From Hymenobacter sp. 15J16-1T3B (lineage in GTDB: Bacteria; Bacteroidota; Bacteroidia; Cytophagales; Hymenobacteraceae): a stretch of 64,000 nucleotides of DNA. The number at the start of each line of letters is the position of its first letter. Position 1 is the stretch's first letter. Under the pieces are notes generated by a model. That model was not told the origin of the DNA. It searched no databases and saw only the letters and a program-made list of their open reading frames with translations. The position numbers and the translations under genes are program-made. Where the stretch lies: assembly GCF_020711235.1 (NCBI RefSeq), contig NZ_JAJFAV010000014.1, positions 1 through 64,000 on the forward strand, read 5' to 3'. This document shows, piece after piece, positions 23,777-32,992 of the stretch.

Positions 23777-24113
23777 CGGCTCGATAAAAGCCAATTGCTT
23801 GAATAGCGGCGGAGCGGGTCTCGAACCCAAATGCTGGGCTTTTCAGCAAAAAGTGGTGCGCTGGACTGCGGACGGCACGCATCCGGCGCTGCGCACAGTG
23901 CCTTGCCTCTGCCGAAATCCCAGCTTCGGGGGCTACAATGCCCGGAAGACGGGTTGGGCGCAGGTGTTCGGGCAGGGAAGCAAGCCGCGCGTGCTTCGGG
24001 CGTTGGGCCCAGGCGTGCTAGCCAAGCCGGAGCCCTAGTGGCGCGGCTGCCGGTTAGTGCCGAGGCCGGCGGAGCGTGTATTTTCGGCCCACCAACCGCC
24101 CACTTGCCCCGCT
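23777..24113. other. 337-bp intergenic region before hutI
   Basis: No convincing gene. It contains a direct repeat of gaatagcggc at 23771-23780 (overlapping the preceding stop codon) and 23801-23810. After it, 23812-23828 read on the minus strand resembles a tRNA T-arm (GGGTTCGAGACCC), but a full tRNA cannot be folded. A TATTTTCG box at 24078-24085 could be the -7 element of hutI. Confidence 0.5.
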
Positions 24114-25379
24114 ATGCTCCAGCCGTATTCCCTGCTTTTCTGCCACGCCGCTCAAGTGCTCACCCTCGCCGGCGGCCCCACCGATAAGCCGCTCACCGGC
24201 GCCGCCCACGCCGACTGGCGGATCATCGAGCACGGCTACGTGGCCTGCCTGGGCGACACCATTGCCGCCGTCGGGCCGATGGACGAGCTGGACGCGGCCC
24301 GCATCGGGCCCGACACGCGGGTCGTCGATGCCTCGGGTCGGGTGCTGATGCCCGGGCTGGTGGAGTGCCACACCCACCTCGTGTTCGGCGGCAACCGCGC
24401 CGATGAATTTCAGCGCAAGCTGCAGGGCGAGTCGTACCTCGACATCCTGGCCTCGGGCGGCGGCATTCTGAGCACCGTGCGCAAAACCCGCGCGGCCGCC
24501 GAGGAGGAGCTGCTGCAGAGCGCTCTGCACCACCTCGACGGCTTCCGGCGCTACGGCATCACCACCCTGGAAGCCAAAAGCGGCTACGGCCTCGACGCCG
24601 AAACCGAGCTGCGCCTGCTGCGCGTGGCCCAGCAGGCCGGCGCCCAACAGCCCGTGCGGGTGGTGCCCACCTTCCTCGGCGCCCACGTGCCCGGTCCCGA
24701 GTACAAGGGCCGCCCCGCCGACTACCTCGCCATGCTGGCCGCCGACGTGCTGCCCCAACTGGACCCGGCCGCGGTGCCCTTCGTGGACATTTTCTGCGAG
24801 GAAGGCGCCTTTTCGGTCGACGATTCGCGGCACTACCTGCAGCGGGCGCGGGAGCTGGGCTTTGGACTGAAAATCCACGCCGAGCAGCTCCACGACCTCG
24901 GCGGCTGCCTGATGGCGGCCGAGCTGGGCGCCGTCAGCGTCGACCACTGCGACTACCTCACGCCCGAAGGCGCCGCCCAAGTGGCCGCGGCCTCGCAGGG
25001 CCGCACCGTGGCCGTGCTGCTGCCGCTGGTGCCCTTGTATCTGCGCCAGGAAAAGTACGCCCCCGGCCGGCAGTTCATCGAGGCGGGCCTACCCGTAGCA
25101 TTGAGCACTGACTTCAACCCCGGCTCCTGCCCGAGCAAAAACCTCTGGCTGGCCCTGCAGGTGGCCTGCCTGAAAATGGGCCTCACGCCCCGCGAGGCCC
25201 TGGCCGCCGTCACGCTGAACGCCGCCTGGGCCATCGGCCAGCAGGCGAACTGCGGCTCCCTGGCGCCCGGCAAGCGCGCCGACCTGCTTCTCCTGGGCGT
25301 GCCCGATTACCGGGAGCTGCCCTACTGGCTGGGCGAAAACCCCGTGGAGCAAGTCGTCATCGGCGGGCAGTTTGTGTAA
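24114..25379 (+). CDS. hutI: imidazolonepropionase
   Basis: 421 residues. Amidohydrolase that opens 4-imidazolone-5-propanoate to N-formimino-glutamate in the histidine degradation pathway. Metal ligands and substrate residues are visible: PGLVECHTHLVFGGNRADEF (His-x-His), SGYGLDAETELRLLRV, the lysine/histidine segment LKIHAEQLHDLGG, and the Asp of LSTDFNPGSCPS, followed by GQQANCGSLAPGKRADLLLL. ATG 24114 is used. No other hut genes are in the window. It is followed by a bidirectional terminator. Confidence 0.95.
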   Translation: MLQPYSLLFCHAAQVLTLAGGPTDKPLTGAAHADWRIIEHGYVACLGDTIAAVGPMDELDAARIGPDTRVVDASGRVLMPGLVECHTHLVFGGNRADEFQRKLQGESYLDILASGGGILSTVRKTRAAAEEELLQSALHHLDGFRRYGITTLEAKSGYGLDAETELRLLRVAQQAGAQQPVRVVPTFLGAHVPGPEYKGRPADYLAMLAADVLPQLDPAAVPFVDIFCEEGAFSVDDSRHYLQRARELGFGLKIHAEQLHDLGGCLMAAELGAVSVDHCDYLTPEGAAQVAAASQGRTVAVLLPLVPLYLRQEKYAPGRQFIEAGLPVALSTDFNPGSCPSKNLWLALQVACLKMGLTPREALAAVTLNAAWAIGQQANCGSLAPGKRADLLLLGVPDYRELPYWLGENPVEQVVIGGQFV

Positions 25380-25497: not shown

Positions 25498-26436
25498 CTA
25501 TTGAAGGCGAATGAGGGCGGCGGCTTGCTCGGGCGCGACGACTTCCAGGGTGGGGCGCAGCACGAGGCCCCGGCGCACGGTGGCCCGCTGCACGCCCAGC
25601 AGCAACTGCCCGTTCTGGCTGCGCAGCGTGAGCACGTTGAGCTCGGTGGAGGGCGGCACGCCGTACAGCTCCATCAGGCGGGTCTGGGTGTTCCACTTCA
25701 TCAGGAAGGCGCCGCTGCGCTGCGTGGGCAGCAGAAACACCCGCGCGCTGGCGTCGCCGCCCACGTCGGCGCGCAACAGGGTGGTGTCGGCCGGGTTGCT
25801 GGTCCACAGCCGCCCCACGCTAAACCAGCCCAGCGAATCCGTCCACACCCGCCGCTGAAAATACCGCTCCCCGCTGGCGGTGCTGATGGTCCGCACCGGA
25901 ACCGTGTCCTGGGACCAGGCAACGGTGACGCCGCCGCTGGCCGTGCCCACTCCCCGCCAAGCCAGTTGGTCGGAGGCGGAGCTGTTGGCGGGCGACAACG
26001 TGTTGACCGTCAGGAAACGGCCGGTGCGGAGTCGCAGCGCGCTGGAGCCCTGCCGGGCCGTGATGCGGATGTGCCCCCCCGCTTCCAGCGGACGAAAGAA
26101 GGAGGAACTGGGCAGGCTGTTGAGTACCATTTGCGGCGTGGTGCCCAGCACCTGCACGCGCAGCTCCACGGTGCCAGCTGCGGGCGTGCCCGAAGGCAGC
26201 ACGAACGACCCGGCCGGCACCACGATGCTGGAGCCGTCGAGCAGCTTCACGGTTTGCGTCTGGTTGCTGTTGACTTCCACCACCTGCACCGGCGCGGCAA
26301 ACAGCTTGTAGAACGCCGCCAGCGACGCCACGCCCGGTTCCACCGGGTCGCAAACGAGCAGGCCGTCCTCGGCTTTGTCGCAGCCCGCGAGCAAGGCCGC
26401 CCCCAGCAGCAGTGAAATCAGGAATGAGCGTTTCAT
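25498..26436 (-). CDS. lipoprotein of the sigma/anti-sigma operon, unknown function
   Basis: 312 residues. Lipoprotein signal peptide with lipobox LAGC (MKRSFLISLLLGAALLAGCDK), so it is lipidated and probably in the outer membrane. The body is beta-rich: VEVNSNQTQTVKLLDGSSIVVPAGSF and AAGTVELRVQVLGTTPQMV resemble the start of a ZU5/ carboxypeptidase-regulatory-like sandwich, and WFSVGRLWTSNPADTTLLRADV is a further strand-rich segment. It starts 28 bp after the stop of the anti-sigma/barrel gene on the same strand and is last before a terminator, so it is most likely the third gene of that operon. A role as a surface or periplasmic partner of the barrel is inference. Confidence 0.75.
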   Translation of the reverse strand: MKRSFLISLLLGAALLAGCDKAEDGLLVCDPVEPGVASLAAFYKLFAAPVQVVEVNSNQTQTVKLLDGSSIVVPAGSFVLPSGTPAAGTVELRVQVLGTTPQMVLNSLPSSSFFRPLEAGGHIRITARQGSSALRLRTGRFLTVNTLSPANSSASDQLAWRGVGTASGGVTVAWSQDTVPVRTISTASGERYFQRRVWTDSLGWFSVGRLWTSNPADTTLLRADVGGDASARVFLLPTQRSGAFLMKWNTQTRLMELYGVPPSTELNVLTLRSQNGQLLLGVQRATVRRGLVLRPTLEVVAPEQAAALIRLQ

Positions 26437-26464
26437 ATCAAGGCACGAAGCAGAGGTCGGGGAA

Positions 26465-28390
26465 TCAGGGGCGGTGCACGTCGAACAGCCAGCCCACCTG
26501 CAGGCCGGCCGACAGCGTGCCGCGGGCGCCGTTGCGGGTCGGCGACGTGAGCAGGTACGTGGCGGCGGGGCGCACGAGCAGCACGGAGCGCAGGCCCAGG
26601 GCGTAATCGAGGCCGAGGCTGGCCGTGAAGGCCACGCTCACCGGGGCAAACGGGCCGGCGCCGGCGCGGCGCTGGGTTTTCTGCTGGCAGTTGCAGCCGT
26701 CGTCGGTGGTGATGTAGCTGCCGCGCAGCAGCCAGCTGGTCGTGGCGCCCAGCCCGAGCACGGGCTGCCAGCGCACAAAGGGCGTGCGCGGGTGCCACTC
26801 GGCCGCCAGTGGCAGCGTCAGGTACTGCTGGGCCAGCTGGTAGCGCTGCCGCTGCCGGCTCACCACCGAATCGAGCAGGCCGTAGCTGACTAGTTGCAGC
26901 GTGTCGGGGCCGGTGGGGTTGTCGCGCACAATCAGCTGCGTGGTGCGGCCCCAGTAAGCCTGGCGTTTCTCCACCGTCACGTTGGCCTCCTGGCGCTGCT
27001 GGGCGTAGCCCACGCCCCCGCGCAGGGCCAGGGTGCGGCTGAGCCGGTACCGGGCCGCTAGCTCCGCCGACACCCCGGGTAAATGGCGCAGCGGCAGTCG
27101 ATTCGAGCTGTCCAAGCGGGGAGATTGGGCGGAAGGCAGCGCGGTGCCCAGTAGCAAGCCTAGGCTCAGGCGCGCGGGCCGCAGGCGCCGCAAGGAGTCG
27201 CGCGGACCGGCGGGCGGCGGTAGGGGCGTTGGCAAGCCTGCACCCGGCGCCAGCAGCAAGGACGAAGTCAGGCTGCCCAGCCCCGCCTCGTCTGCGCGCC
27301 AACGCGTTAGGCTCTGGGCTTGGCCAGCCGCAGTAGTTGCTAACTCCGGAGTAGCCCGCGTGGCCGTGCCTGCCGCGTCCGGCTCGGCGCTGGGCGCGGC
27401 AGGTGCAGTGGCGTTCATAGCGGGTTTAGCCGCTTTCTTTTTAACCGAACCTGCCCCCAGCGCGCCAAGCCCGGCGGTCTGGCCGCCGGGGCCCGGCAGG
27501 GCGGGGTTTACCGTCGAAGGCGTCGAAGGCTGCGCGGCATGGTCGGGGGGCGCTGAGTTCGACGCAGCAGTGGGAGGCGTATCCTGGCCCGCTGGCTGCG
27601 CCGCCGTCGGGGTGTTTAGACCGGTTGACGAGGCAGAACTGCCCGGCGGCCGGGCGGCCGCAGGTTGCGCGGTCGGGGCATCCGTAGCCGACGCTTTAGC
27701 CGGCACGCGAGGCGTCCGACGCCGGGCAGCCGCTACCACTACGAGGGCCGTCTTGCCCCGTTGCCGGCGCCGGGCGGCGGCTAGCCGGGGCCGCGCCGCT
27801 TCGCCCGACACCGCGGGGCTGGTGGTATCGGCGGGCGCGCTGCCGGCCAATCCCGGGTTTGCGTGTTGAATAGAGCCTCGGGGCGGAATGCGGGTGGGAT
27901 GCCCCGAAGCTAGCCGCTCGGGCACGGCCGGGCCACCGCTGCGCGTCACGCCGGCCGCGGGAGTGGAGCCGGCAGCCGGGGAACTGGCTACGGTTGCAGC
28001 GGCCCCAGTCCGCGATGCTGTTGAAGAACCCAGTGCCGCGGTTTCGCCGGACTTACCGGCGGCCGCTGGGGCCGCCGGCCCCGCAGCGGGGCGGTTGGCT
28101 GAGGCAGCGGAGCCAGTAGCTGCTCGGCCCGGCCCTACGCGAGCAGTGGAGGGCGCTTCTGGACCGCGCTGGGCCTGCCACTGCCAAAGTAGGGCGGTCG
28201 GTACCAGCAGCAACAACAACGCCAGCAGCAACAAGCGGCGGCGCGGCGTGCGCCGCCACCACGGCTTGGGCGGTAGTGGGGGGAGCTTTTGCGCAATACC
28301 CGCCCACCCCCCGGCCGGGAGTGGCTCCTCGTAATCGTGCAGCCGATTACGCAGGGCGTCGTAGAACGGATCGGTTTCGGGCGCGCTCAT
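26465..28390 (-). CDS. dual-membrane anti-sigma factor: cytoplasmic anti-sigma motif, inner-membrane helix, long linker, outer-membrane barrel
   Basis: 641 residues with four parts. (1) Cytoplasmic 1-45, FYDALRNRLHDYEEPLPAGGW, the short Bacteroidota anti-sigma signature (F-L-x2-Y-x3-P-x3-W). (2) An Arg-flanked membrane helix at 51-69 (LLLLALLLLLVPTALLW). (3) A linker of about 330 residues (72-400), extremely rich in Ala, Pro, Ser, Thr and Gly with basic clusters, with no fold expected. (4) A beta-barrel at about 400-641 (RLSLGLLLGTALPSA, LAARYRLSRTLALRGGVGYA, FVRWQPVLGLGATTSWLLRG, ending LQVGWLFDVHRP) with a Cys-x-Cys loop DDGCNCQQ. The start ATG overlaps the sigma-factor stop codon (ATGA). 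The plan equals the dual membrane-spanning anti-sigma (Dma) proteins described in Bacteroides. It should hold the ECF factor inactive until an envelope signal arrives (inference). Confidence 0.82.
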   Translation of the reverse strand: MSAPETDPFYDALRNRLHDYEEPLPAGGWAGIAQKLPPLPPKPWWRRTPRRRLLLLALLLLLVPTALLWQWQAQRGPEAPSTARVGPGRAATGSAASANRPAAGPAAPAAAGKSGETAALGSSTASRTGAAATVASSPAAGSTPAAGVTRSGGPAVPERLASGHPTRIPPRGSIQHANPGLAGSAPADTTSPAVSGEAARPRLAAARRRQRGKTALVVVAAARRRTPRVPAKASATDAPTAQPAAARPPGSSASSTGLNTPTAAQPAGQDTPPTAASNSAPPDHAAQPSTPSTVNPALPGPGGQTAGLGALGAGSVKKKAAKPAMNATAPAAPSAEPDAAGTATRATPELATTAAGQAQSLTRWRADEAGLGSLTSSLLLAPGAGLPTPLPPPAGPRDSLRRLRPARLSLGLLLGTALPSAQSPRLDSSNRLPLRHLPGVSAELAARYRLSRTLALRGGVGYAQQRQEANVTVEKRQAYWGRTTQLIVRDNPTGPDTLQLVSYGLLDSVVSRQRQRYQLAQQYLTLPLAAEWHPRTPFVRWQPVLGLGATTSWLLRGSYITTDDGCNCQQKTQRRAGAGPFAPVSVAFTASLGLDYALGLRSVLLVRPAATYLLTSPTRNGARGTLSAGLQVGWLFDVHRP

Positions 28391-28938
28391 GAGCATTGAA
28401 TGCGTTGACGGGCCGTGAGGCGTGCTTCCAGCAGCTTGCGGGCCCGTGAGAGTTGGGATTTGCTGGTGCCTTCCGAGATGCCCAGCATTTCCGCTATTTC
28501 GGCGTGGGCGTAGCCCTCCACCGCGTACAGGTTCAGTACCATGCGGCAGCCCTCGGGGAGGGTGCCTACCAGGGCCAGCAGTTCCGTCATGGAAAGGTGG
28601 TCGAGGGCGTCGCCGTTGGTTTCCGCCACGGGCGGCGCATCGTCCCACGACACATGCAGGCCGGGTTCTTGGCGTTGCCGCCACGCGTGCAAGGCCGTGT
28701 TTACGGCGATGCGGCGGGCCCAGGCCTCGAAGGGACCTTGGCCGGTGAATTGATGAATTCGGGTGAAAATCTTGACAAACACGTTCTGCAGCACTTCCTC
28801 GGCTTCCTCGCGGTTCGGGCAGTAGCGCAGGCACACGCCGAACAAGCGGCCGCCCAGGCGCTCATACAGCGCCTGCTGGGCCGACGAGCGGCCCTGGCGG
28901 CACTGTTCCACTAGCTCGTCGATGGACACTGGGGGCAT
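28387..28938 (-). CDS. ECF-type RNA polymerase sigma factor
   Basis: 183 residues. Region 2 spans about 20-90 (RLFGVCLRYCPNREEAEEVL, NVFVKIFTRIHQFTG, FEAWARRIAVNTALHAWR) and region 4 about 125-180 (LPEGCRMVLNLYAVEGYAHA, EIAEMLGISEGTSKSQLSRA). It directs RNA polymerase to a special promoter set. I chose the ATG complementary to 28936-28938, which puts the ECF start (SIDELVEQCRQG) at the N-terminus; the frame also has an ATG at 29070 that would add 44 non-family residues. The stop overlaps the start of the anti-sigma/barrel gene by four bases, indicating coupled translation of the pair. Confidence 0.93.
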   Translation of the reverse strand: MPPVSIDELVEQCRQGRSSAQQALYERLGGRLFGVCLRYCPNREEAEEVLQNVFVKIFTRIHQFTGQGPFEAWARRIAVNTALHAWRQRQEPGLHVSWDDAPPVAETNGDALDHLSMTELLALVGTLPEGCRMVLNLYAVEGYAHAEIAEMLGISEGTSKSQLSRARKLLEARLTARQRIQCS

Positions 28939-28976: not shown

Positions 28977-29154
28977 TGCCGAGCCGGGCAGCTAAAAGTT
29001 CAGGGCCCGCGTGGGCTGATGACCCAAAAGCAGCGTTCGGGGTTGGAACGTGCGCTGAAAAAAATCGCATATCAGCGGCCCCGGGTAGCGCCGCCTGAGG
29101 CCGATGGCTGGGAATCAGGCAATTCGTGAAAAATAAAAAACAGTCAGGGGGCCG

Positions 29155-30768
29155 TTAGGGCGCCTGCCGCAGCAGGCGCACGGCTTGGGGAGCGTCGGGG
29201 AATCGGGCGAGGTAGAGGCCGGCGGGCAGGGCCGGGTCGGGGGTCCAGGTGAGCGAGGCGTCGGGGCCGGGGCCGGGGGGCACGGGCAGGCGGGCCACCA
29301 CGCGGCCGAGGCGGTCGAGCACGAGCACGGCCGCGGCCGGCCGGGCCGGCCGCGCCAGCGTGAAGCGCACCGAGGCCCCGAACGGGTTCGGGTACGCCCA
29401 CGCCGCCGCCGACTGCGCCCGGCTGCGGCTGGCCAGCGGCGAGCCGTACACCCGGAACACCAAGGTCTGCGTGTCGAAGCCCTTGATCGGGCAGGCGTTG
29501 TCGTCGGCTTGCACCGGCACGTAGTACAGCCCGTCGGGCAGCGTGGCGGGCGGCGCAAACGTCACCGTGAGGGCGCCGGGGCCGCTGGCTCGCTCGCTCA
29601 GCCCCGGGACGCTCTGCCGGTTAGCCGTCAGCGCAAGCACTTGCCCGGCGTTGTCGTCGGTTGCCGACACGGTAACGCTGACGGAACTGCCCGAGCGCAC
29701 CGCCACGGCCTGAGTGGCCGGCTGCGGCGCCGGCTGGCCGGCCACCTGCACCGTGGCCGCAAAGCGCGGGTACACGTTCGGGCCGCAGTTGACCACCGTG
29801 AGCATCATCTCGCGGCGGGCCGTGCCAATGAGGCGGTAGCCGCTGCCGACGCGGCGGTATTCCTGCACCTGCACGGCCACCGCGTAGCGGTTGTCGCCGG
29901 TGCTGCGGGTGCCGTTCGGGTCGTACATGCCCGCGTTGAACGTCATGCCCCCGGTCGCTACGTTGAAGGCAAACGGCCGGGCCGTAGCCCGCAGCAGTGG
30001 GCAGGAATCGGCCGTGTCCAGGCGAGTGGCAATGGGGTAGGCGGGCGAAAATGCGGTGGGCTGCCCCGCGGCCGCCATCAGCACGCAGGCCGGCGTGCTG
30101 GATACGAGTAGCGGATTAGCCAGCGGCGTGGGCAGGTAAGTGGCCGCGACGCCGCAGCTGTTCAGCGGGGCCACCGACGAAAACACCAGCGAGTCGCCGT
30201 CGATGTCGAAAGCGCCGATGCTCACCCGGCTGTTCAGCTTCCAGCCGACGTAGTTGATGGGCAGCGAACCGAAATTGGGCGAGTTATTGGCGACGCCGTT
30301 GCGGTTGTCGAGCGTGGCCTCGAAGCGCATGTCGGTGTTGCCGACGATGTTGGCCAGTGGGCCGCGCACGTTTTGGTCCACGCTTAGCGTCCACTGGGCG
30401 GCGGGCAGGGTTAGCGTGCCCACGTAATTGTTTTCCTCGTAGTTGCCGGGATTGGGGCTGCCGCAAATGCTCGTGACGGCGCAATTCTGGGGCCCCGGAA
30501 TGCCCTGGCCCTCGAGCACCAGCGTGGCGGTGCGGTCGAGCGGGTCGGGCGCCCCGGCGCAGCCGTTGACGCGGGCGTTGAGCGTGAAAGAGGCCGCCGC
30601 GGCAATGCCCGAACAGTCACGGAAGTGCCGCAGCGTGACGCGGTAGCGGTTGTTGCCCAGTGACTCGTAGCGCAGGTCGCCGCCCAGGTCGTGCGAGGCC
30701 CGGGCGGGTGCCGCCGACAGGCCCATCGCGGCCGCAAGCAGCAGGGCAGAAGGTAGAAAACGCGACAT
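29155..30768 (-). CDS. T9SS-secreted protein, paralogue A
   Basis: 537 residues. Signal peptide (MSRFLPSALLLAAAMGLSAAP, cleavage near ARA-SHD). The mature N-terminus ASHDLGGDLRYESLGNNRYR and the FRDCSG motif define a Bacteroidota family of large surface proteins with internal disulfide-type Cys pairs. A cadherin/Ig-like strand-rich middle (SVSVTVSATDDNAGQVLALT) precedes the T9SS type A sorting domain (about 455-537, from YPNPFGASVRFTLARPARP). The ATG complementary to 30766-30768 is used; a TTG two codons upstream is less likely. The next gene upstream is a close paralogue, and the last 231 bp of coding similarity are identical in DNA. The function (adhesin or surface layer component) is inference. 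Confidence 0.8.
   Translation of the reverse strand: MSRFLPSALLLAAAMGLSAAPARASHDLGGDLRYESLGNNRYRVTLRHFRDCSGIAAAASFTLNARVNGCAGAPDPLDRTATLVLEGQGIPGPQNCAVTSICGSPNPGNYEENNYVGTLTLPAAQWTLSVDQNVRGPLANIVGNTDMRFEATLDNRNGVANNSPNFGSLPINYVGWKLNSRVSIGAFDIDGDSLVFSSVAPLNSCGVAATYLPTPLANPLLVSSTPACVLMAAAGQPTAFSPAYPIATRLDTADSCPLLRATARPFAFNVATGGMTFNAGMYDPNGTRSTGDNRYAVAVQVQEYRRVGSGYRLIGTARREMMLTVVNCGPNVYPRFAATVQVAGQPAPQPATQAVAVRSGSSVSVTVSATDDNAGQVLALTANRQSVPGLSERASGPGALTVTFAPPATLPDGLYYVPVQADDNACPIKGFDTQTLVFRVYGSPLASRSRAQSAAAWAYPNPFGASVRFTLARPARPAAAVLVLDRLGRVVARLPVPPGPGPDASLTWTPDPALPAGLYLARFPDAPQAVRLLRQAP
29168..29398 (-). repeat. 231-bp perfect direct repeat, copy A (sorting domain)
   Basis: Identical base by base to 30928-31158 (offset 1760). 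It encodes the last 76 residues before the tail of both paralogues, that is, nearly the whole T9SS sorting domain; identity stops abruptly at both ends. Confidence 0.97.
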
Positions 30769-30831
30769 AACCAAGCGTTCTGAACGATGCTAACGGGTAA
30801 AGGCAGTTCGTAAGGGCGGTCCGGCCCGTCG

Positions 30832-30914: not shown

Positions 30915-32570
30915 TTAATTCGTCAGGCGCAGCAGGCGCACGGCTTGGGGAGCGTCGGGGAATCGGGCGAGGTAGAGGCCGGCGGGCAGGGCCGGGTCGG
31001 GGGTCCAGGTGAGCGAGGCGTCGGGGCCGGGGCCGGGGGGCACGGGCAGGCGGGCCACCACGCGGCCGAGGCGGTCGAGCACGAGCACGGCCGCGGCCGG
31101 CCGGGCCGGCCGCGCCAGCGTGAAGCGCACCGAGGCCCCGAACGGGTTCGGGTACGCCGACACCACCGGCCGTTGCTGCGCGTTGGCGCTGCTCAGGGCG
31201 GTGTTCGTCACCCGAAAAGCCAGGGTCTGCACTTCAAAGCCTTTGATCGGGCAAGCGTCGTCGTCGGCGCGCACCGTCACGTAGTAAGTGCCTTCGGGCA
31301 GCGTAGCGGGCGGGGCAAACTCGATGGAAAGGGTCGTGGCGGAGTTCTGCACCACGCTCACGCCCGGCACACCCAGGTGGTTGGCGGAGAAGGTGATGTG
31401 CTGGCCGGCGTTGGCATCGGTGGCCGTCAGCACGACCGAGGTGGCCGCGCCGGCCCGCACCGAAATCGGCGTGGCAACCGCTACCGGCCCCGATTGGCCA
31501 AAGACCTGCATCGTGCTGGCGAAGCGCGGCAGCTGGTTTTGCCCGCAGTCGTACACGTTGACGAAAAGTTCGCGGCGGGCGCTGCCGACGTGTTGGTAGC
31601 TGCCGTTGAGGCGGCGAAACTCGTCTACCTTCACCGTCAGGGCGTACTTGTTGAGGCCCTGGCCCGGGGTGGTGTTAGCCGTGTAGGCAATCGGCGTAAA
31701 GCGCAGCCTGCCGGTGGCCGCGTCGAGCAGGAAATAGGGCGCGGCCGTGAACACCGGGCAGGCGCCCGTCAGCTGCGCCGAGGGCAGCGGGTACGTCGCC
31801 GACAGGGCCGTCGACGGCATGACGGCCGTGCAGCCCGGGCTGAGGGTGTAGGTGCCGCCGGCGGGCGTGCTGGTGTAGGGGCTGAGCATGTTGCAGCCTT
31901 CCAGCGGCGTGACCAGCGAAAACGCCAGCGAATCCCCGTCGGCGTCGTAGGCGCCCATGTTCAGCGAAATATCCCGCTGCCAAGCCACAAACACGGCCGG
32001 AGTGGAGCCAAAGTTGGGCGAGCTGTTGGTGAGCGTCGTGGTCGTGCCCCCGGCTTGCAGCTGGTTGTTGAGCACCGCCTCGAAGCGCAGCGTGCGGGTG
32101 ATGACGTTGGAAAGGTTAGCCAGGGCTGGGCGGGCGTTTTCTTCCGCGCTCAGCACCCACTGCGCCGGCGCCAGCGTGACGGTGCCCGTGTAGGTATTCT
32201 CTTCGTAGTTATCGGGGCCGGCGCCGGTGCACACGCCGCTGGCGGTGGCGCAGTATTGGTTGCCGTAGATGGGCAAGCCCTGCTTGGTGAGCGTGGCGGT
32301 GAAGTTGCGCGAATCGGTGCTGGCGCAGGAGGTCGTGGCCGTGCCTATCCGGGCGTTAAGGGTCATCGACGACGGGGCGTCGACGCCGCTACAGTCGCGG
32401 AAAAAGCGGCAGGTGACCTTGTAGAGGTTGGGCCGCACCGGGCTGTACTGGTTGCCGATGTATTCGTAGCGCAGGTCGCCTCCCTGGGCGTGCGAGGCGC
32501 GGGCTTCGTAGCCGCCCAGGCCGAGCAAGGAGAGAACGGTCAGCGTCGTTTTGGGTAAAAAGTGCTTCAT
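30915..32570 (-). CDS. T9SS-secreted protein, paralogue B
   Basis: 551 residues. Signal peptide (MKHFLPKTTLTVLSLLGLGG, cleavage near ARA-SHA). Same plan as paralogue A: ASHAQGGDLRYEYIGNQYSP, CRFFRDCSG, paired cysteines, strand-rich repeats (TSVVLTATDANAGQHITFSA) and the C-terminal T9SS sorting domain identical to that of paralogue A. N-terminal and middle parts have diverged far more than the last 76 residues. The ATG complementary to 32568-32570 starts the signal peptide. The spacing of 146 bp to paralogue A, with a hairpin between, suggests a tandem duplication with separate or attenuated transcription. Confidence 0.8.
   Translation of the reverse strand: MKHFLPKTTLTVLSLLGLGGYEARASHAQGGDLRYEYIGNQYSPVRPNLYKVTCRFFRDCSGVDAPSSMTLNARIGTATTSCASTDSRNFTATLTKQGLPIYGNQYCATASGVCTGAGPDNYEENTYTGTVTLAPAQWVLSAEENARPALANLSNVITRTLRFEAVLNNQLQAGGTTTTLTNSSPNFGSTPAVFVAWQRDISLNMGAYDADGDSLAFSLVTPLEGCNMLSPYTSTPAGGTYTLSPGCTAVMPSTALSATYPLPSAQLTGACPVFTAAPYFLLDAATGRLRFTPIAYTANTTPGQGLNKYALTVKVDEFRRLNGSYQHVGSARRELFVNVYDCGQNQLPRFASTMQVFGQSGPVAVATPISVRAGAATSVVLTATDANAGQHITFSANHLGVPGVSVVQNSATTLSIEFAPPATLPEGTYYVTVRADDDACPIKGFEVQTLAFRVTNTALSSANAQQRPVVSAYPNPFGASVRFTLARPARPAAAVLVLDRLGRVVARLPVPPGPGPDASLTWTPDPALPAGLYLARFPDAPQAVRLLRLTN
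30928..31158 (-). repeat. 231-bp perfect direct repeat, copy B (sorting domain)
   Basis: Partner of 29168-29398. Flanking codons differ at once on both sides (Leu-Thr-Asn tail versus Gln-Ala-Pro tail; VSAYPNPF versus AWAYPNPF). Confidence 0.97.
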
Positions 32571-32992
32571 AGAGTGTTCGGTTGGGAAAGGGGAGGAAAG
32601 CACTAGTGGCCGCAAGGGCGAAGAATACACGGGGCGAAACTTTCCGGCGGACCCGGTCGGCTGGGGTTTCAGAGGGCATGACCCCGCGCACCGGAAACGG
32701 GTTGGAACTCCAGCAGAAAAAAATCAGCGGGCCGGCGCGTTTCGGCACCAGCAGCACGCTCAAGCCTGGGAACCAGCCCTGGAAATCGGCCCGTTGACTG
32801 CGTGTAAATAGTGTGTAAGCTATTGTAGTGCAGGTTTATAGCTGTGTGGGTAAAACAGAGGCGTCACGCCGAACGAAATTGTGTAGCTCCGCCTCGCCTG
32901 CTGCGGAAAAGCCAGCCTCGCCGCGGCGGCTGGTCACCGGCCGCCGGATTTTGTAGCTTCGTCCGCCGCCCCACCAGTCGTTGTTGCTTGCC
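32571..32992. other. 422-bp divergent intergenic region
   Basis: No credible ORF. An AT-richer patch at 32790-32860 carries ttgact (32794-32799) and a short inverted repeat aatag...ctatt around 32806-32823, which may mark promoters. TAGCTTCG at 32953-32960 is a -7-like box 33 bp before the PhzF-like gene. Confidence 0.45.

What the first reader, a model, noticed from the sequence alone, without database searches (positions are those of the whole stretch)
25498..28938. ECF sigma factor, dual-membrane anti-sigma factor and lipoprotein operon
One 641-residue polypeptide combines a cytoplasmic anti-sigma motif (Y-x3-P-x3-W), an inner-membrane helix at 51-69, about 330 disordered Ala/Pro/Ser/Thr-rich residues and an outer-membrane beta-barrel, overlapping the sigma gene by ATGA and followed after 28 bp by a lipoprotein gene. 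This matches the dual membrane-spanning anti-sigma (Dma) concept known from Bacteroides. The conserved third gene (lipoprotein) and a Cys-x-Cys loop in the barrel may be new parts: a sensor that connects cell surface and transcription without a separate TonB receptor or protease cascade.
Basis: partly seen in the sequence, partly recalled or inferred. Interest (0 to 1): 0.7.

Follow-up and report, generated by a model that had tools for sequence, protein, structure and literature searches.

The report
Surface-sensing anti-sigma operon with lipoprotein
A Hymenobacter-type bacterium carries a three-gene unit in which one protein, stretched from the cell surface to the cytoplasm, probably holds back a gene switch, and one of its surface loops is kept or lost together with a neighbouring lipoprotein, which suggests that the two work together as one sensor.

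Summary
An ECF sigma gene overlaps (ATGA) a 641-residue Dma-type protein: cytoplasmic motif, inner-membrane helix, 332-residue low-complexity tether, C-terminal outer-membrane barrel (PF13568 in 47 of 48 aligned members). A lipoprotein gene follows after 28 bp. The nearest named genome is Hymenobacter edaphi. The architecture itself is known (Dma; EcfO/Reo-type pairs).

Found here: (1) A C-x-C in a near-constant-length, predicted extracellular barrel loop tracks the lipoprotein gene. Of 66 loci, 52 have both, 12 neither, 1 only C-x-C, 0 only the lipoprotein; 1 ends too early. They change together about four to five times on a tree (likelihood ratio 35.5; sign test on four independent pairs only p=0.125). 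(2) A GCAACC-N16/17-GGTCA promoter lies before the sigma gene in 65 of 66 loci. (3) In this genome and H. edaphi the local form also precedes a neighbouring secreted-protein gene. (4) None of 18 Dma loci outside the family has C-x-C; one has the lipoprotein.

Best reading: a Dma variant whose surface loop works with a lipoprotein partner.

The parts
29019..29048 (-). Promoter-like site TTCCAACCC-N14-GGGTCAT before the sigma gene (CAAC 107 bp before its ATG)
   Evidence: same bipartite site before the sigma gene of relatives
28387..28938 (-). ECF sigma factor gene, 183 aa
   Evidence: Sigma70_r2 1.2e-16, Sigma70_r4_2 6.7e-17; 96% identical in H. edaphi
26465..28390 (-). Dma-type anti-sigma factor gene, 641 aa
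28241..28390 (-). Predicted cytoplasmic sigma-binding region, residues 1-50, with invariant L13, L17, W29
   Evidence: Alignments
28178..28240 (-). Predicted inner-membrane helix, residues 51-71
   Evidence: Hydropathy maximum at 53; basic residues before it
27179..28174 (-). Tether, residues 73-404, 69% A/P/S/T/G; 207-339 residues long in the 48 aligned members
26468..27178 (-). Predicted eight-strand outer-membrane barrel, residues 405-641
   Evidence: PF13568 in 47 of 48 members; segment-length pattern
26657..26722 (-). Predicted extracellular loop 3, residues 557-578, holding the C-x-C
   Evidence: Length 22.1, sd 1.1, over 48 members, against sd 9.5 and 10.2 in loops 1 and 2 and 1.7 in loop 4
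26687..26695 (-). C566-N-C568
   Evidence: Invariant in 23 of 23 and 48 of 48 (rows chosen with C-x-C); 42 of 42 intact lipoprotein-linked Dmas
25498..26436 (-). Lipoprotein gene, 312 aa, lipid Cys19, second Cys29, acidic residues after the lipid Cys
   Evidence: no Pfam or NCBIfam family
32678..32707 (-). Second copy of the promoter-like site, before the secreted-protein gene (CAAC 134 bp before its ATG)
   Evidence: orthologous site in H. edaphi
30915..32570 (-). Gene of a predicted secreted protein, 551 aa, candidate member of the regulon
   Evidence: same place in H. edaphi (550 aa) and H. gummosus (538 aa)
29155..30774 (-). Paralogous secreted protein, 539 aa, between that gene and the sigma gene; possibly read from the same promoter
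   Evidence: 52% identical to the 551-aa protein; co-transcription not tested

Best explanation
The operon encodes a self-regulating envelope sensor of the Dma type with a lipoprotein partner. The N-terminal 50 residues of the 641-aa protein hold the sigma factor at the inner membrane; the helix and the long flexible tether link this part to an eight-strand barrel in the outer membrane. The barrel's third outer loop, with the C-x-C, works together with the lipoprotein, most likely by docking it or by forming a site that it controls. A change at the surface (ligand, damage, or thiol/metal chemistry at the C-x-C; which one is unknown) alters the barrel or its partner, frees the sigma factor, and the sigma factor then reads its own operon and, in this lineage, the neighbouring secreted-protein gene from the CAACC...GGTCA promoter. 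Shown by sequence: the architecture, the gene order, the promoter, and the joint keeping and losing of C-x-C and lipoprotein. Inferred: sigma binding, outer-membrane insertion, surface location of the lipoprotein, physical contact, the signal, and promoter use.
For: Architecture and order. Co-occurrence: of 66 loci (65 named ones kept from the 80, plus the window) 52 have lipoprotein and C-x-C, 12 neither, 1 C-x-C alone (L204, H. terrenus), 0 the lipoprotein alone, 1 unknown at a contig end (L220). On a tree built without the loop columns each trait changes 5 times; 4 independent pairs on well-supported branches, C-x-C going the same way in 3.7 on average and never the other way; a dependent two-trait model beats an independent one by LR 35.5, p 3.7e-7. 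Two of the losses are local edits, not barrel swaps: L216/L221 lost the loop in frame with 78-87% identity on both sides to L215, L217 has Y-G-G for C-G-C with 72% and 83% identity to L235. Promoter: CAAC-N18-GTCA in 57 of 66 upstream regions and N19 in the other 9, against at most 5 for any such word in 5 shuffles. Lipoprotein: acidic residue at +2 to +5 after the lipid Cys in 44 of 45, the optimal export signal C-x-K-(D/E)2 in 14 of 45 (signal from PMC5080379, abstract and passages).
Against: The sign test on four pairs gives only p 0.125, and the tool says that under six pairs cannot reach 0.05; the dependent model has rates at their bounds and the tree is a quick one with 17 of 63 inner branches open. 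L204 keeps C-x-C without the lipoprotein. The lipoprotein's second Cys is absent in 5 of 45 although these Dmas have C-x-C, so no fixed disulfide partner exists. Outside Hymenobacteraceae related lipoproteins stand next to other ECF sigma/anti-sigma pairs or after Dmas without C-x-C, so the lipoprotein does not need C-x-C everywhere. Genome-wide searches with looser promoter patterns give little above controls (own genome 14 against 13; 84 against 56 over 21 genomes). No structure could be predicted.
Confidence: 0.6

Rival explanations
1. The lipoprotein is only an output of the system, such as a protective or repair lipoprotein made when the sigma factor is free, like NigD proteins or the genes next to dma2 in Bacteroides. 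It takes no part in sensing; the C-x-C serves the barrel alone.
For: In B. thetaiotaomicron the genes next to dma2 are among the most induced when dma2 is deleted and are not needed for vesicle production (PMC13088901, passages). In P. vulgatus NigD genes are induced with the EcfO/Reo-type pair (PMC9308784, passages). Seven of the 13 loci examined outside the family have the related lipoprotein divergent from a different ECF sigma/anti-sigma pair.
Against: A pure output gives no reason why the C-x-C in the barrel should disappear in the same lineages.
Confidence: 0.25
2. C-x-C and lipoprotein are not partners but were lost together because lineages stopped meeting one and the same signal, or because single recombination events took out the end of the Dma gene together with the next gene.
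For: The C-x-C codons lie only about 220 bp before the end of the Dma gene; in most of the 12 lipoprotein-less loci (9 of 12) the barrel is under 50% identical to the nearest C-x-C barrel left of the loop.
Against: In L216, L221 and L217 the barrel on both sides of the loop is 72-87% identical to a C-x-C relative, so the loop changed on its own; the lipoprotein is gone from the genome, not just from the spot, in 12 of 13 lipoprotein-less Dma genomes searched, the 13th having only related domains in 595- and 646-aa frames.
Confidence: 0.2
3. The 641-aa protein is a porin-like protein with a membrane anchor that lies next to a sigma gene but does not inhibit it.
For: No Pfam or NCBIfam anti-sigma model matches it; binding was not tested.
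Against: Coupled ATGA or overlapping reading in most relatives (gap -4 in 38 and -8 in 22 of 65), invariant N-terminal residues, and experimental precedent for the same architecture: mutants of Dma2 and of the P. vulgatus protein act through the cognate sigma factor (PMC13088901, PMC9308784, passages).
Confidence: 0.05

Closest known systems
[quoted passage not shown]
   Same: N-terminal sigma-binding part, one membrane helix, long disordered tether, C-terminal barrel, next to an ECF sigma gene; dma2 also lies in a three-gene operon (PMC13088901, abstract and passages)
   Different: Third gene here is not DUF4943 at Pfam level (no match in 45 lipoproteins); C-x-C loop linked to it; different host order. 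The Dma1 paper (PMC10927553) was not held, so whether it mentions such parts is unknown
EcfO/Reo and the P. vulgatus pair M0N98_03761/03760
   Same: ECF sigma followed by a large anti-sigma factor predicted to span the periplasm with a C-terminal barrel; response to oxidative or envelope stress (PMC9308784, passages; the EcfO paper itself not held)
   Different: No lipoprotein or C-x-C linkage described in the passages seen
Class B Dma of the same genome (G000 contig C7, locus L039) and 12 Hymenobacteraceae relatives
   Same: Sigma overlap, membrane helix at about 50, tether, barrel
   Different: No C-x-C in 13 of 13 and no such lipoprotein; upstream regions show another motif, GGCAGCCTTTT...TTGTCTG, read by eye
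FecA-FecR-type cell-surface signalling (recalled)
   Same: Surface signal to ECF sigma factor through an inner-membrane anti-sigma factor
   Different: There the outer-membrane receptor is a separate TonB-dependent protein; here barrel and anti-sigma part are one polypeptide
RcsF with its outer-membrane partners (recalled)
   Same: A lipoprotein that works with an outer-membrane barrel as a stress sensor
   Different: No homology tested or claimed; output is a phosphorelay, not a sigma factor

Membership tests
Dma family | Gene next to an ECF sigma gene | tested here: met
   ATGA overlap in the window; sigma next to Dma in all 66 loci compared, a criterion of the selection
Dma family | One transmembrane helix after a short cytoplasmic N-terminal part | tested here: met
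   Hydropathy maximum at residue 53, basic residues before it
Dma family | Long intrinsically disordered tether | tested here: met
   332 residues, 69% A/P/S/T/G; 207-339 in 48 members; no disorder predictor was run
Dma family | C-terminal outer-membrane beta-barrel | tested here: met
   By sequence family only: PF13568 in 47 of 48 members, window below the curated cut-off; strand and loop pattern. Structure prediction off
Dma family | Sigma factor of group ECF21 | not testable with these tools
   No ECF-group models held; NCBIfam gives only the superfamily TIGR02937 over its cut-off among the 25 of 88 matches shown
Dma family | Inhibits the cognate sigma factor; lies in both membranes | not testable with these tools
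   Needs experiments
Surface-exposed Bacteroidetes lipoproteins | Lipobox followed by export signal C-x-K-(D/E)2 or similar acidic residues | tested here: inconclusive
   Acidic residue at +2 to +5 in 44 of 45, exact C-x-K-(D/E)2 in 14 of 45; window has C-D-K-A-E-D. No signal for Hymenobacter is defined in the passages seen
DUF4943 (third gene of the dma2 operon) | Match to the Pfam family | tested here: not met
   Not among families at E<=0.1 for any of 45 lipoproteins

The most novel reading that the evidence does not exclude
The lipoprotein is the missing input part of a Dma sensor: it sits on the cell surface, docks on barrel loop 3 through a site that needs the C-x-C (a loop disulfide, a bound metal or a redox switch), and its binding or release sets whether the anti-sigma part, across both membranes, lets go of the sigma factor. 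This would be a complete surface-to-RNA-polymerase line in two proteins.
Probability: 0.3. Interest if true: 0.75.

Novelty: new variant of a known kind. Interest (0 to 1): 0.55.

Why it matters
How Dma proteins sense anything is open: the Dma2 paper calls for finding what is sensed (PMC13088901, passages). Here evolution has done the experiment: lineages without the lipoprotein have lost a specific two-cysteine site in the barrel, and two of the losses are small local edits. That points to a defined loop and a defined partner, so that the signalling step can be tested with two cysteine changes and one gene deletion in a culturable, non-pathogenic genus. The promoter gives a ready reporter, and the neighbouring secreted-protein gene a first target.

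Tried and rejected
Structure prediction of the 641-aa protein and of the lipoprotein: switched off for all sessions; the barrel was then argued from family matches and segment lengths. Solved structures by sequence: nothing usable for either alignment (best E 0.062-0.94 range; the table's best values were 0.62 for the lipoprotein and 0.058 for the Dma, the latter in the low-complexity part).

Wider regulon by looser promoter patterns: near control levels. Of the 30 loci returned (of 84 matches) 11 are sigma promoters, 4 lie before genes of predicted exported proteins and 15 before no frame of 90 aa or more within 200 bp. The exact pattern TTCCAACCC-N14-GGGTCAT was read off the two window sites, so two exact hits per genome were partly expected; the information is that there is no third exact site, and that hits with two mismatches (3 and 2) match the backward control (4 and 5).

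Disulfide between lipoprotein Cys29 and the C-x-C: rejected as a general rule, since 5 of 45 lipoproteins lack the second Cys. Frame break in the tether: rejected for the window, though L096/L241 and L214 do show broken Dma frames; their barrel fragments still carry C-x-C and the lipoprotein gene is present. These rows (L214, L241) and L218 (contig edge), L231 (no Dma), L233, L234, L236-L240 and L242-L245 (other kinds) were dropped from the 80 loci before the count of 66.

Absence from print: searched; no paper in the held library describes the C-x-C or this lipoprotein link in the listings and passages seen, but the Dma1 and EcfO papers were not held.
Full report
What is there. On the minus strand the window holds an ECF sigma gene (28938-28387), a 641-aa gene that starts inside its stop region (ATGA), and, 28 bp further on, a 312-aa lipoprotein gene. 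The sigma factor matches Sigma70_r2 and Sigma70_r4_2. The nearest named relatives by sigma factor are Hymenobacter edaphi (96%) and H. gummosus (89%).

Architecture of the 641-aa protein. N-terminal residues with invariant L13, L17 and W29, a hydrophobic stretch from 53 after a basic patch, a 332-residue tether with 69% A/P/S/T/G, and a C-terminal barrel. PF13568 is found in 47 of 48 aligned members; the window protein alone stays below the curated cut-off (22.6 against 27 bits). I divided the barrel by eye into eight strands: the proposed strands and periplasmic turns keep their lengths over 48 members, loops 1 and 2 vary (sd 9.5 and 10.2 residues), while loop 3, with the C-x-C, stays at 22.1 (sd 1.1) and loop 4 at 11.9 (sd 1.7). 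With both ends in the periplasm, loop 3 would face outwards. This topology is inference; structure prediction was off.

One reading frame. Window and H. edaphi keep one frame through the tether (12 gapped residues) with most differences at codon position 3 (0.44/0.40/0.63 of codons for positions 1/2/3), although the tether evolves fast (42% identity against 76% in the barrel).

The third gene. In a search of 150 genomes of the family 50 had some match to the lipoprotein at E<=0.001, including partial matches in larger proteins. I fetched 42 loci with full-length matches; with the window all 43 have sigma, Dma and lipoprotein in this order, one with a broken Dma frame, and the 42 intact Dmas all carry C-x-C. 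Three further loci with partial matches had no sigma gene (L133-L135).

A selection not made on the lipoprotein. To avoid choosing for the lipoprotein I searched genome contigs with the sigma alignment (the alignment itself came from lipoprotein-bearing loci). Of 80 loci 65 had an intact Dma of this class; 15 were dropped (listed in Tried and rejected). With the window, 52 of 66 have lipoprotein and C-x-C, 12 have neither, one (L204) has C-x-C only, none has the lipoprotein only, and one (L220) ends at the contig end. The lipoprotein is not elsewhere in the genome in 12 of the 13 lipoprotein-less Dma genomes searched; the 13th (that of L225) has only related domains inside frames of 595 and 646 aa (completeness of these genomes is not told there).

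Joint loss. On a quick tree of sigma, Dma N-terminus and barrel without the loop columns, each trait changes five times. Four independent pairs lie on well-supported branches; C-x-C follows the lipoprotein in 3.7 of 4 on average, never goes against it, and the sign test gives 0.125. A two-trait likelihood model that lets the traits depend on each other is better by LR 35.5 (4 degrees of freedom, p 3.7e-7), with several rates at their bounds. L216 and L221 lost the loop in frame while the barrel on either side stays 78-87% identical to L215; L217 has YGG in place of CGC with 72% and 83% identity to L235. The other nine C-x-C-less barrels are 37-47% identical to their nearest C-x-C barrel left of the loop, so for them the order of events is not clear.

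Promoter. In 66 upstream regions the word CAAC-N18-GTCA occurs in 57 and the same with N19 in the other nine; five shuffles gave at most 5 for any word of this shape. One row, H. gummosus, is that of its second sigma gene; its Dma-linked sigma gene has the site not directly before it but before the secreted-protein gene upstream. So 65 of 66. Consensus GCAACC-N16/17-GGTCA, CAAC 73-107 bp before the ATG in the 57. Lipoprotein-less loci keep it. This fits an ECF promoter and autoregulation; use of the site is inferred.

Neighbour gene. In the 64-kb window the pattern CAAC[CG]-N15-18-GGTCA occurs twice: before the sigma gene and before the gene of a 551-aa predicted secreted protein upstream of it. 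Both window sites, and both orthologous H. edaphi sites, read TTCCAACCC-N14-GGGTCAT; there is no third exact site in either genome. H. gummosus has a like site before its single homologue. The letters were read off these sites, so this is a candidate regulon of two promoters, not a proven one. Looser patterns do not show a wider regulon.

Specificity. Class B Dmas (13 aligned, one in this genome) have no C-x-C and no such lipoprotein. Outside the family I fetched 40 sigma loci from a phylum search with matches in 125 of 395 genomes: 18 have helix and barrel (barrel profile E<=0.001), none of the 18 has C-x-C, one (L316) has the lipoprotein. The lipoprotein family reaches further: 42 of 395 genomes have some match. 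Of 20 such loci fetched I examined the gene order of 13: seven lie divergent from another ECF sigma gene with a ~240-aa anti-sigma-like gene (identified by eye), three follow sigma and a Dma without C-x-C, three neither. So the lipoprotein family keeps company with ECF systems in general, and C-x-C is the Hymenobacter version of the link.

How it probably works, and what is known. Dma proteins and their use are established in Bacteroides: mutants of dma2 act through das2 (PMC13088901, abstract and passages), and a P. vulgatus pair with the same layout is induced by an envelope-damaging toxin (PMC9308784, passages). The window's protein has every sequence feature of this kind that I could test. 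The new element is the tie between a surface loop and a lipoprotein. I read it as a partner that takes part in sensing (0.6 for the whole model), against an output-only lipoprotein (0.25) and indirect joint loss (0.2); these overlap and need not sum to one. The lipoprotein's acidic residues after the lipid Cys (44 of 45; 14 of 45 with C-x-K-(D/E)2) resemble the export signal of surface lipoproteins of Capnocytophaga.

Verdict. A real, conserved operon; new variant of a known kind; the co-loss of C-x-C and lipoprotein makes the sensing step of a Dma directly testable.

Noticed in passing
window 29155-30774 and 30915-32570, minus strand: Tandem paralogous secreted-protein genes, 52% identical in protein; their last 300 bp are 90% identical DNA, which suggests recent conversion or duplication. 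The C-terminal part looks like a type IX secretion sorting domain by eye; NCBIfam finds no family.
   Followed up: partly
L039 (own genome, contig C7), L064-L073, L075, L076, L078: A second class of Dma with its own, different promoter-like motif GGCAGCCTTTT...TTGTCTG before the sigma gene, read by eye.
   Followed up: partly
L167 (H. gummosus): Two sigma genes of this class in tandem within 4 kb, the second with the standard GCAACC...GGTCA site.
   Followed up: no
L096/L241 (Hymenobacter sp. H14-R3), L214 (Hymenobacter sp. BRD67): Dma reading frame broken while sigma and lipoprotein genes and the C-x-C barrel fragment are present; L231 (H. telluris) has the sigma gene with no Dma after it.
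   Followed up: no
L054 and L053 (own genome, contigs C38 and C1): Two further sigma genes followed by proteins of 552 aa and 309 aa with the same kind of N-terminal motif; no barrel found by the barrel profile.
   Followed up: no
lipoprotein-less loci L200, L201, L205, L207, L210, L212, L225, L229: An imidazolonepropionase-like gene on the opposite strand still lies beyond the Dma gene, as beyond the lipoprotein in the window (24057-25379), so the lipoprotein seems to have dropped out of a kept neighbourhood (read by eye; in L210 another lipoprotein-like frame lies between).
   Followed up: partly
L146, L148, L149, L152, L153, L155, L160: Relatives of the lipoprotein in other families stand divergent from an ECF sigma gene with a ~240-aa anti-sigma-like gene.
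   Followed up: partly
G000:C11:775409-776755, G551:C11:96712-98256 and other hits: Larger proteins (about 500-700 aa) contain domains related to both halves of the lipoprotein.
   Followed up: no
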